Assembly: GCA_022072445.1 (NCBI GenBank)
Contig: JAJVHV010000007.1
Coordinates: forward strand, 1 to 64,000
Length of the DNA: 64,000 nucleotides
Direction: 5' to 3'
Origin: Phycisphaerae bacterium
GTDB taxonomy: Bacteria > Planctomycetota > Phycisphaerae > UBA1845 > Fen-1342
Shown: piece after piece, positions 29,496 to 32,544 of the stretch
Numbering within the stretch: position 1 is the first letter of the stretch
Layout: the number at the start of each line of letters is the position of its first letter
Made by a program: the position numbers and the translations under genes
The notes under the pieces: generated by a model
The model's input: the letters and a program-made list of their open reading frames with translations, nothing else
Database searches by the model: none
What the model was told of the DNA's origin: nothing

Positions 29496-30619
29496 CTATG
29501 GCGTGAAGACGATCTTCGCCGACTCGAGGTCCTGACCAATCAGCGCGGCGCCGGCCGGCGCGCTGGAGTTCTTGAACTCGCACTGCATGGCCGCGACGCC
29601 TAGCATCGCCGCCGCGATGCCCGCGCAGCCATTCCCCGAGCTGGCGATCCCGTTGATGCGGATCTTCCCGGCGTCGGTACCGAGGAGCGAGCGCGTGTAG
29701 AGCGGGCTGAAACTCGATAGCGGTCGACCGCACCACCCGGCGATGCAGGGCGCCGGCCAACTGAAGCGAACCTCGTTCTGGTTCCAGGTCGGCATGTCCA
29801 GCCGCGTCGTCGTCGGCACCGCGCTCGCCAGGTCATTCGACACTACCGCCAGCGTCAGCTCGGTCGAACCGACCTTGAAACCGTTCACGTCCGACGATAC
29901 GACCGCGCCTTCCGCGAAGAACTCCAGCAGCAGGCGCCCGGGCGCCGACTGATACTCGCCGCCGATGCTCAAAACGCCCGGCGTTCCGATGATCTCGCCC
30001 TGTGTACCCGTGTTGGACTGGAACGCCCAGGCCGCGTATTTCCACGATCTTTCGTCGCCGTAGTCCACCAGCGTGGCGGAGCCGGTCAGGTGATTCCAAC
30101 GGATCTGGCGGCCATTGGCGTCGACCGCCCAGAGAATCAGCATGCCGCGGACGACGCGGTCGCCGCTGCCTTCCGGGTCGGGTCGGCCGTTGCGCACCGG
30201 ATCGAGCCGTCCGAACGGCTGCACCCTGCTGATCGGCAGGCCGACGCCGGGCTTCCCGCTGTAGGCCGACCAGTAGGTCGGGTTCTCGACGGTCAGGCGC
30301 CCATCGAACCGCACGTTGTTCCAGCCCGGATGGGCCGGCTCGCCGAGCACCGCGGGCAGCGGCGCGTCGCCATTGACGTAGTAACCGCGAAAATAGACGT
30401 CGCCGGGCCGTCGTTGGACAGCGTGAGAATGGTGTCGGTGGCGAGTTCGGTCGAATCGATCACGCCGTTGCCGTTAAGATCGCGCCAGCGCAACTCGATT
30501 TTCGGAAAAATCAGCAGACTGCCTTTCTGCGAGGTGTTCGCCCGGTCGGACGGGTTCTGCCCCAGTGCAAACTCCGAAACGCACAGAACGACGAGCACGG
30601 CGGAAGTCAGGCGAGCCAT
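29496..30619 (-). pseudogene. Exported EF-hand protein gene interrupted by a 1-nt frameshift
   Basis: Translation from ATG 30619 gives a signal peptide (ending FALGQ) and an EF-hand-like loop DLNGNGVIDSTE (residues 48-59). The frame then becomes unlike protein near 30398-30404, inside a cgccgggccg run. One extra base there would join it to a second frame that reads DVYFRGYYVNGDAP and continues to the stop at 29496, giving an intact ~374-aa exported protein. The second part contains PCIAGWCG and ends in ESAKIVFTP. It is either a recently broken gene or a sequencing error in a GC homopolymer. The original function is unknown. GGAAAGG lies before the start. Confidence 0.75.
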
Positions 30620-30813
30620 GGGTCATCCACCTTTCCTGATCGGGGTCCGCCCACGCGTTTGTCGGTGAGCGGTCCTTACAGAACGCGATCAGTCGCGCTG
30701 GATCACGCAATCTCGCAGAAAAAATCCCCGGACCGCCGTTCCCGCAACCGGCCGCCCGCGCCGCCGATGCCATCATTCTACGCCGGCGTCGGCGTTCGCC
30801 GGGATCGAGCGGC

Positions 30814-30842
30814 TTGTCACGGCTCGTCGCTCGGCTTATTCT
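30814..30842 (+). promoter_or_regulatory. Sigma70-type promoter for the RT leader RNA
   Basis: A -35 box TTGTCA (30814-30819, 5 of 6 consensus) and a -10 box TATTCT (30837-30842, 4 of 6) are separated by exactly 17 bp. Transcription would start near 30849, leaving a 270-nt untranslated leader before the RT start codon. Confidence 0.6.
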
Positions 30843-30848
30843 GGTGAT

Positions 30849-31121
30849 GCCTCTACGAAACGGCGTGGAGGGTGGGACATTGCTGATCGTCAAGTCAAGG
30901 TCGGCCGAAAGGCTGAATCGAGACGCGACGCGCAGGCGAGCGAGAAATCGTTTCGTCTTGCACATCAGAGTGCTCCTCCGATTGTAGCGATTGTTACTTT
31001 GCGGCCTCGTCCGCGAGGACGAGTGGCGACATTCGAAGTCGAATGTTCGGCTTCAGCCGAAGGGGACCTTTGGGATGCCGCAGGTCCTCAGCGTCCCCTT
31101 CGGCTCTGCTACACGTCACGC
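30849..31121 (+). ncRNA. Candidate structured ncRNA (template/partner RNA) of the RT system
   Basis: This non-coding stretch between the promoter and the RT gene holds a row of hairpins: 8-bp arms 30850-30857/30864-30871; 6-bp 30901-30906/30911-30916 with a GAAA loop; 7-bp 30919-30925/30954-30960 enclosing a second GAAA-loop stem; perfect 7-bp CTCGTCC/GGACGAG with GCGA loop at 31006-31023; perfect 7-bp ACATTCG/CGAATGT at 31029-31046. A perfect 13-bp stem 31055-31067/31093-31105 competes with a 6-bp hairpin at 31046-31061. In DRT2 systems a similarly long, structured RNA sits directly upstream of the RT and is its template. Here the identity of the RNA is inference from position and structure; the boundaries are approximate. 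Confidence 0.6.
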
Positions 31122-32435
31122 ATGAGCAGAACGCACCGCCGAAAGCGCCCGTCATCATGGCCCGACTGGTTCGTGCCGAAGTCCTACCCGCACTTCGATC
31201 AGCCTGTTCGTGACCCCGAGCAAGTGCGGTGGCTCGTCGAAACGCCGGAGCAGGTAGCACGTCACGCCTTCCTGCCCTTCATTCACTTCGGGAAAGTCAC
31301 CCGGAAATACAAGCGTGCTGAGGGTCATTTCATCCAGAAAACTCGATCCCTGTCCTACGCAAGCCACACTGATTCGCAGCTGTTTCGTCGATACGGCAAC
31401 GAACTGTCAACCCATTACGAGACAGCGTTGATCGACGGCGGCTTCGACGGAGGGGTGCTCGCATACCGCCGCTTCGAGCCTCGCAAGTGCAACATTCACT
31501 TCGCGAACGATGCGTTTCGCTGGATCGAAGACCACGCCCCGTGCGTCGCGATGGCGTTCGACGTAAAGGACTTCTTTGAATCCCTCGATCACAAAATGCT
31601 GAAACGGGAGTGGAAGGCGCTGCTTGGTGTCGAGAGCCTCCCAGCGGATCATCATGCGGTCTTCAAGGCAATCACGCGGTACGCTTGGGTTCAGCGTGAG
31701 CCGCTTTTCGCGCGTTTCGGGATTACGAAGAAGAAGCTCGCCGACTGGCGCAAACCGATTTGCTCGCCGGCGGAGTTTCGTTCCATCGTGCGAACCGACG
31801 ATCCAGCGCGCAGTTTGATCAACAAAAAGATTGGCGGGATCGGAATCCCGCAGGGTTCACCGATCAGCGCGCTGCTCTCAAACGTCTACATGATACCCGT
31901 TGATCGGCGCATGGCCGCGCGAGCCAAGGAGTGCGGAGCACTCTACTGCCGGTACAGCGACGACATACTCATCGCCTGCAGCGCCGAGCACCGGAGTGAC
32001 TTGGAGATGGAGCTCCGGAGCGCCATGGCCGACGCAAGGCTGGAGCTTCACGACGGTCCTGGGAAAATCGCGGTCGCGAGTTTTGCCACAACCGCGGGCG
32101 GCGGCCTCGAATCGGACAAGCCCCTTCAGTATCTCGGATTCGCTTTCGACGGCCAGTTCGTGCGGATTCGCTCACAGACGGTCGCACGATTCTTCCGGAA
32201 GATGCGGAAGGCAGTGCGCCGCGAAAAATACCTGGCCACGGCGCGGGCAGAAGCCGGCGGCGACGGACGGGTTCGGCGCAAGCTGTTGTACAGCCGCTAC
32301 ACCCACTTGGGCACGAACAACTTCGTGACCGGCTACGCGAAAAACGCCCGCGAAGTCATCGATCGAAACGCGATACGCAAGCAAATGAGAAAACACTGGA
32401 CCGTTCTGCACGCACTGCTAGTCGTCGGAGCTTGA
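31122..32435 (+). CDS. Reverse transcriptase, DRT2 (UG2)-like antiphage type
   Basis: The 437-aa protein has the RT core: motif A AFDVKDFFESLDH (Asp147), GIPQGSPISALLSN at 241-254, the catalytic YSDD at 278-281 and PLQYLGFAFDG at 334-344. It lacks the maturase X, HNH and DNA-binding parts of group II intron RTs. The N-terminal WFVPKSYPHFDQP, SLSYASHTDSQLF and CNIHFANDAF blocks and the C-terminal SRYTHLGTNNFVTGYAKNA agree with what I recall of DRT2/UG2 proteins, which copy an adjacent ncRNA into repeated cDNA as an antiphage response. The DRT2 label is from memory and needs a profile search; retrons or another UG class are alternatives. ATG 31122 is preferred; an in-frame TTG at 30999 would read through the RNA stems. 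GC content (48-53% in two sampled rows) is below the neighbours, suggesting transfer. Confidence 0.8.
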   Translation: MSRTHRRKRPSSWPDWFVPKSYPHFDQPVRDPEQVRWLVETPEQVARHAFLPFIHFGKVTRKYKRAEGHFIQKTRSLSYASHTDSQLFRRYGNELSTHYETALIDGGFDGGVLAYRRFEPRKCNIHFANDAFRWIEDHAPCVAMAFDVKDFFESLDHKMLKREWKALLGVESLPADHHAVFKAITRYAWVQREPLFARFGITKKKLADWRKPICSPAEFRSIVRTDDPARSLINKKIGGIGIPQGSPISALLSNVYMIPVDRRMAARAKECGALYCRYSDDILIACSAEHRSDLEMELRSAMADARLELHDGPGKIAVASFATTAGGGLESDKPLQYLGFAFDGQFVRIRSQTVARFFRKMRKAVRREKYLATARAEAGGDGRVRRKLLYSRYTHLGTNNFVTGYAKNAREVIDRNAIRKQMRKHWTVLHALLVVGA

Positions 32436-32544
32436 CAACCGAGTTGCGGTGGGATTGTCCGCCGGTCGCGACCTCGATGCCGCCAATTGTCCAGTCCTCA
32501 ACCCGCCGATGAATTACAACTTGCGCCAATGGTAACGCCCGCCC

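What the first reader, a model, noticed from the sequence alone, without database searches (positions are those of the whole stretch)
31122..32435. Compact DRT2-like reverse transcriptase in a PVC-like genome
A stand-alone RT with YSDD and GIPQGSPIS but without maturase or endonuclease domains, and with N- and C-terminal blocks that I recall from DRT2 (UG2) antiphage RTs. DRT2 makes repeated cDNA from its RNA and so creates a new gene during phage infection. No integrase, intron boundary or retron effector is next to it, so it looks like a complete two-part (RNA plus RT) defence unit.
Basis: partly seen in the sequence, partly recalled or inferred. Interest (0 to 1): 0.85.

Follow-up and report, generated by a model that had tools for sequence, protein, structure and literature searches.

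The report
DRT2 antiphage RT with variant template-jump motif
This is a complete two-part bacterial antivirus system, a reverse transcriptase plus an RNA from which it can assemble a hidden toxic gene, and it appears to make that gene by jumping between two copies of ATTG instead of the ACA described for the known systems.

Summary
ORF 31122-32435 (437 aa) is a full-length DRT2/UG2 reverse transcriptase: NCBIfam Drt2 equivalog 445.8 bits against a cut-off of 390, predicted fold TM 0.86 to KpnDRT2 (9c0i), and placement inside the DRT2 clade with a Phycisphaeraceae protein as sister.

It lies immediately upstream (about 30849-31116): a sigma70-like promoter, the 5' handle, a template, and a pseudoknotted scaffold matching Rfam RT-12 end to end, though below the gathering score. 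The template carries the neo proto-gene on the minus strand: RBS, ATG at 30965, -10 TACAAT and -35 TTGACT. Joining the template at the repeated tetranucleotide ATTG (30879/30990) gives a 111-nt repeat, a promoter with exact 17-bp spacing and a stop-free 37-codon frame. No ACA pair, the published jump motif, gives an in-frame product. Two relatives show the same layout with ATTGC and ATT; other divergent DRT2s use other 3-5-nt matches, while all seven Klebsiella-type loci give ACA.

So this is an ordinary DRT2 with a lineage-specific jump motif, and with an unusually basic predicted Neo repeat. Everything about cDNA, Neo and defence here is inferred from sequence.

The parts
30814..30842 (+). 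Putative promoter of the ncRNA: -35 TTGTCA (30814-30819), 17 nt, -10 TATTCT (30837-30842)
   Evidence: Read directly in the sequence; inferred, no transcript data
30849..31116 (+). Predicted DRT2 ncRNA (about 268 nt; ends inferred)
   Evidence: Folds at -126.7 kcal/mol, z -5.3 against 200 shuffles; 3' part matches Rfam RT-12 end to end at 27.5 bits, below the 44.2 gathering score
30850..30871 (+). 5' handle hairpin CCTCTACG/CGTGGAGG
   Evidence: all pairs kept in L002 and L121 with changes
30879..30989 (+). Predicted cDNA template, 111 nt = 37 codons
   Evidence: Junction scans
30879..30882 (+). First ATTG jump copy (position of the published ACA-1)
30990..30993 (+). Second ATTG jump copy (position of the published ACA-2)
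30893..30898 (-). -35 element TTGACT of the junction promoter
30981..30986 (-). -10 element TACAAT of the junction promoter; exactly 17 bp from the -35 after the ATTG join (14 + 3 nt)
30973..30979 (-). Ribosome-binding site GGAGGAG of neo
30879..30965 (-). First part of neo: ATG at 30963-30965 up to the junction (MCKTKRFLARLRVASRFSLSADLDLTISN); repeat continues RYNRRSTL from 30989 to 30966
31000..31005 (+). Pseudoknot strand 1, TGCGGC
   Evidence: Complementary to 31077-31082; identical in L002 and L121
31077..31082 (+). Pseudoknot strand 2, GCCGCA, in the loop of the main stem
31006..31023 (+). Buttress-like 18-nt hairpin CTCGTCC/GGACGAG
   Evidence: Pairs kept with 3 (L002) and 4 (L121) two-sided changes
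31029..31046 (+). Tower-like hairpin ACATTCGA/TCGAATGT
   Evidence: Read from the sequence; an alternative pairing is favoured in the fold
31055..31105 (+). Main scaffold stem AGCCGAAGGGGAC/GTCCCCTTCGGCT
   Evidence: 13-bp perfect inverted repeat; 7 of 13 pairs changed on both sides in L121 with pairing kept
31122..32435 (+). DRT2 reverse transcriptase, 437 aa

Best explanation
This is a complete DRT2 (UG2) abortive-infection unit. The upstream ncRNA binds the RT through its handle and pseudoknotted scaffold. The RT copies the 111-nt template, reaches the 5' copy of ATTG, and the nascent cDNA 3' end re-anneals to the 3' copy, so copying repeats and gives a concatemer of 111-nt units. Once double-stranded, each junction has a sigma70 promoter (TTGACT-17-TACAAT) that reads a stop-free frame of 37-aa repeats (Neo), which would stop growth and block the phage. 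Shown here: RT identity, RNA layout, split promoter, frame and matched ATTG copies. Inferred from KpnDRT2: RNA binding, rolling-circle copying, second-strand synthesis, transcription, toxicity and defence.
For: RT. RNA: RT-12 full-length match; RT-12 is the 3' RNA of the E. coli (81.8 bits) and Photobacterium (72.9 bits) DRT2 loci; z -5.3; compensatory pairs. Template: a promoter-only scan, blind to homology and frame, scores this locus 18.0; 0 of 400 shuffles and 0 of 1086 window tiles reach that. One of its two equal-best solutions has a period divisible by 3, a stop-free frame and a 4-nt match. L002 gives the same layout as its single best solution (TTGACG-17-TACAAT, 129 nt, ATTGC). L121 fits with TTGACA-17-TACGCT, 129 nt, ATT. 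The same scans recover the published ACA and 117 nt in all seven Klebsiella-type loci.
Against: In the promoter-only scan an equal-scoring -35 (TTGACG, 116 nt, out of frame, 2-nt match) exists in this window; it is rejected by frame and by L002, which lacks it. In L121 the intended solution is not the top hit of that scan and its -10 is weak. Protein-level conservation of Neo between window and L002 is not decisive: neo frame 87, other sense frames 54.5 and 67, antisense up to 81.5. The predicted Neo repeat is basic (+7, GRAVY -0.37), unlike the mostly hydrophobic others. RT-12 is below its gathering score. No RNA or DNA data.
Confidence: 0.8

Rival explanations
1. A DRT2 RT and RNA that make repeated cDNA by another junction, so that the ATTG/111-nt solution is wrong, though the system is DRT2.
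For: Other joins also give open frames, for example TCGTC at 120 nt, and open minus-strand frames are easy in G+C-rich DNA. An equal-scoring -35 at 116 nt exists.
Against: The 120-nt join scores lower and weakens the -10 (AACAAT); the 116-nt join is out of frame. L002, whose repeat is 18 nt longer, keeps the ATTG edges and the exact 17-bp spacing.
Confidence: 0.12
2. A DRT2 RT whose effector is the cDNA or its transcript itself; the open frame is incidental and no Neo protein is needed.
For: Neo protein conservation is weak here and the repeat is unusually basic. Tang et al. leave room for alternative mechanisms in divergent clades (PMC11100668).
Against: RBS, ATG and a period divisible by 3 recur in the relatives: 15 of 18 high-scoring non-Klebsiella loci, binomial P 2e-5 against 1/3 if loci were independent.
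Confidence: 0.06
3. A degenerate DRT2 remnant or a non-defence RT.
For: It stands alone in a housekeeping region with no defence genes nearby.
Against: Intact ORF with catalytic residues; RNA pairing kept with compensatory changes; DRT2 commonly stands alone (PMC11100668).
Confidence: 0.04
4. Group II intron, retron or DGR RT.
For: Shared RVT_1 core; weak hits to these families.
Against: Much weaker scores than Drt2, tree placement and fold match.
Confidence: 0.01

Closest known systems
KpnDRT2 of Klebsiella pneumoniae (DRT2/UG2; PMC12039810, PMC11100668; PDB 9c0i)
   Same: Stand-alone RT of about 430 aa; ncRNA of about 280 nt upstream; handle, template, pseudoknot and scaffold order; promoter and neo split across the template edges with 17-bp spacing; repeat divisible by 3.
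   Different: RT 34% identical in the fold alignment; jump copies ATTG, not ACA; repeat 111 nt rather than 120; basic rather than hydrophobic predicted Neo; RT-12 score below gathering.
DRT2 of a Phycisphaeraceae MAG, CP054186 (L002)
   Same: RT 62-63% identical; same RNA edges; ATTGC jump; TTGACG-17-TACAAT.
   Different: Repeat 129 nt; Neo 43 aa.
Rfam RT-12 (RF03016) and RT-13 (RF03017)
   Same: RT-12 covers the scaffold and pseudoknot here; both families lie just upstream of DRT2 RTs.
   Different: This RNA is a divergent member at 27.5 bits; RT-13 is found in the rhizobial DRT2.
DRT10 (UG17), PMC12632851
   Same: Repeat synthesis by short homologous template segments (A/A'), shown there to be replaceable in pairs.
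   Different: Short 9-nt repeat, protein-primed, tripartite operon; no neo gene.

Membership tests
DRT2 (UG2) | RT protein of the Drt2 family over full length | tested here: met
   NF041746 445.8 bits > 390, residues 16-431; PADLOC Drt2 E 4e-139; TM 0.86 to 9c0i
DRT2 (UG2) | No extra protein domain or partner gene | tested here: met
   Only RVT_1; neighbours unrelated
DRT2 (UG2) | Structured, pseudoknotted ncRNA directly upstream | tested here: met
   (comparison with two relatives)
DRT2 (UG2) | Template flanked by ACA-1 and ACA-2 | tested here: not met
   No ACA pair gives an in-frame product; ATTG pair instead. ACA is described for Kpn-related members, so this is read as a lineage trait and not as exclusion from the family
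DRT2 (UG2) | Promoter formed across the repeat junction, 17-bp spacing | tested here: met
   TTGACT-17-TACAAT, by sequence only
DRT2 (UG2) | Repeat divisible by 3 with stop-free frame, RBS and start | tested here: met
   111 nt, 37 codons, GGAGGAG, ATG
DRT2 (UG2) | Neo protein: hydrophobic, alpha-helical repeat | tested here: inconclusive
   GRAVY -0.37, net +7 per repeat; structure of the joined repeat not predicted
DRT2 (UG2) | Concatemeric cDNA, Neo toxicity, phage defence | not testable with these tools
   Needs experiments
Group II intron / retron / DGR RT | Phylogenetic placement within those clades | tested here: not met
   the outgroup rows were not individually classified, so no named retron or DGR row was in the tree; fold and profile scores stand in for them

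The most novel reading that the evidence does not exclude
Template jumping in DRT2 is set by any matched 3-5-nt pair held at the handle and pseudoknot, and not by ACA. Lineages have changed both copies together (ATTG here; AGAT, CGTT, GAAG, GTAT elsewhere), so neo genes can be read from many DRT2s so far without one. In this clade the toxin itself has become a cationic repeat, perhaps with another target.
Probability: 0.4. Interest if true: 0.65.

Novelty: new variant of a known kind. Interest (0 to 1): 0.5.

Why it matters
Tang et al. (PMC11100668) report that Neo could not easily be annotated in divergent DRT2 clades and suggest alternative mechanisms. The layout found here offers a simple answer for part of that diversity: the same mechanism with a different pair of jump letters. 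It makes the hidden gene predictable from sequence, and it turns the question of what defines the jump into a direct swap experiment (ATTG to ACA, both copies together). It also links two Rfam families of unstated function, RT-12 and RT-13, to DRT2.

Tried and rejected
ACA-based joins in this RNA: four pairs, none in frame. Join TCGTC at 120 nt: weakens the -10. Out-of-frame -35 at 116 nt. Neo conservation as proof of coding: inconclusive. MAFFT alignment of whole ncRNAs and of the main stem: misaligned, so pairs were counted on hand-set helices. Empty-site comparison: relatives hold only distant PaaC-family homologues, so it was not attempted further. Single-protein viral scan: nothing; the profile scan gave about a dozen DRT2 loci. 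Flanking repeats suggesting insertion: none convincing. No junction was found for Calothrix, Persicobacter, Megaera and several others, so the general rule does not cover all DRT2s. Weak Rfam npcTB_6715 hit at 30755-30865: judged chance. Neo repeats were not folded because the joined sequence is not contiguous in the window.

Full report
OBSERVATION. The ORF at 31122-32435 is real and intact. It holds an RVT_1 domain only, GIPQGSPIS and YSDD, and it is the only RVT_1 match in the 5.25-Mb assembly. Neighbours are housekeeping genes: transaldolase, alpha/beta hydrolase, PaaA/PaaC family, sulfatase, glycosyltransferase 9. There are no tRNAs within 10 kb. G+C dips to 0.57-0.62 over about 30.5-32.5 kb, which fits horizontal gain; no terminal repeats mark an insertion.

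IDENTITY OF THE RT. NCBIfam Drt2 NF041746 scores 445.8 bits over a cut-off of 390. PADLOC Drt2 is at E 4e-139, with UG17 next at E 5e-26. The nearest solved structure by sequence is KpnDRT2, E 2e-78 over 15-424. An AlphaFold2 model from 13 window and locus sequences (mean pLDDT 85) matches 9c0i with TM 0.86 over 432 columns. Group II, DGR, retron and DRT9 RTs reach about 0.5 or less by query length. In a 52-row tree the protein groups with L002 (Phycisphaeraceae MAG, 63% identity) and L121 (a genome of the same class as that MAG, 45%), inside a 36-row DRT2 clade. In the phylum-wide sample only 1 of 392 genomes, this one, has a Drt2 over cut-off, so the system is rare there.

THE RNA. Rfam RT-12 matches 30992-31112 from model position 1 to 117, at 27.5 bits, below its gathering score of 44.2. 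RT-12 matches the E. coli (81.8 bits) and Photobacterium (72.9) DRT2 loci just before the RT gene, and RT-13 does so in Neorhizobium. RT-12 and RT-13 are therefore DRT2 RNAs. The window RNA 30849-31116 folds with z -5.3. It has a handle (30850-30871), a pseudoknot TGCGGC/GCCGCA (31000-31005 / 31077-31082), a buttress-like 18-nt hairpin and a 13-bp main stem. Between the window and L121, 7 of 13 main-stem pairs and 4 of 5 buttress pairs changed on both sides with pairing kept (helices set by hand). The handle, template, pseudoknot, buttress and tower order is that of the KpnDRT2 RNA (PMC12039810).

THE HIDDEN GENE. KpnDRT2 copies a 120-nt template into tandem repeats by jumping between two ACA motifs; the junction makes a 17-bp-spaced promoter and a stop-free ORF, neo (PMC11100668, PMC12039810). 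In the window the minus strand has TACAAT (30986-30981), GGAGGAG (30979-30973) and ATG (30965-30963) at one template edge, and TTGACT (30898-30893) at the other. I noticed this by eye first, then tested it. A scan that scores only promoter, RBS and start at 17-bp spacing, ignoring homology and frame, gives the window 18.0. None of 400 shuffles of the locus and none of 1086 tiles of the window reach that. One of its two equal-best solutions, with period 111, is divisible by 3, stop-free and joined at a 4-nt match ATTG; the other (116) is out of frame. No ACA pair gives an in-frame repeat. L002 gives TTGACG-17-TACAAT, 129 nt, ATTGC, as its single best solution. L121 fits with TTGACA-17-TACGCT, 129 nt, ATT, but its promoter is weak and is not the top hit of the promoter-only scan. 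L003, another planctomycete, gives CATT at 99 nt.

BEYOND THIS LOCUS. With the same scans all seven Klebsiella-type loci give ACA and 117 nt, as published. Among 31 other DRT2 loci, 18 score 16 or more; 15 of these have a period divisible by 3 (binomial P 2e-5 against 1/3), 10 with a match of 3 nt or more. The threshold of 16 was chosen after a first look, some loci are related, and in tiles of other RT loci 32 of 68 high scorers are also divisible by 3, so this P is optimistic. Clear non-ACA cases are AGAT (Photobacterium), CGTT (rhizobia), GAAG (Azospirillum), GTAT (C. difficile phage) and TATTA (L090). In two rhizobial records the first neo repeat is annotated as a hypothetical protein. Several DRT2s, for example Calothrix, give no convincing junction.

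MECHANISM AND LIMITS. The best reading is a working DRT2 abortive-infection unit with an ATTG jump. Steps shown by sequence: RT identity, RNA layout, split promoter, frame, matched edges. Steps inferred from KpnDRT2: RNA binding, rolling-circle copying, second strand, neo transcription, Neo toxicity, phage restriction. Two cautions remain. The predicted Neo repeat is basic (+7, GRAVY -0.37), whereas most others are hydrophobic. And protein-level conservation between the window and L002 does not separate the neo frame cleanly from antisense frames.

PRIOR WORK. Tang et al. state that Neo annotation was harder in divergent clades. In the papers I could read I found no report of non-ACA jump motifs; the final Science version of Tang et al. 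and other subscription papers were not available, so priority is not established. The DRT10 study shows that paired changes of short homologous segments are tolerated there (PMC12632851), which supports the idea by analogy.

Noticed in passing
L059:1171-1305 and L058:1177-1305 (minus strand): Annotated 'hypothetical proteins' AYD04577.1 and WSG77506.1 are the first Neo repeat of rhizobial DRT2 systems running past the junction.
   Followed up: yes
L067:1152-1288, L057:1388-1500, L059:1403-1472: Rfam RT-12 and RT-13, listed only as sRNA families, are the 3' scaffold RNAs of DRT2 systems.
   Followed up: partly
window 29496-30619 (minus strand): A secreted-protein-like gene seems split by a frameshift near 30400 (ORFs 29496-30350 and 30293-30619); real or an assembly error.
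   Followed up: no
window 30474-30965 (minus strand): A 163-aa open frame starting at the neo ATG could be called as a hypothetical protein by gene finders.
   Followed up: yes
L054, L055, L069, L072: DRT2 loci of Calothrix, Persicobacter and Megaera show no recognisable neo junction; they may use other signals or another product.
   Followed up: partly
window 30500-32500: G+C drops to about 0.57-0.62 against about 0.67-0.71 on most flanks, suggesting horizontal gain.
   Followed up: partly
L006:1-380, L007:1519-1944: Two DRT2 fragments in other genomes of the phylum, one at a contig end and one with an in-frame TAG.
   Followed up: no
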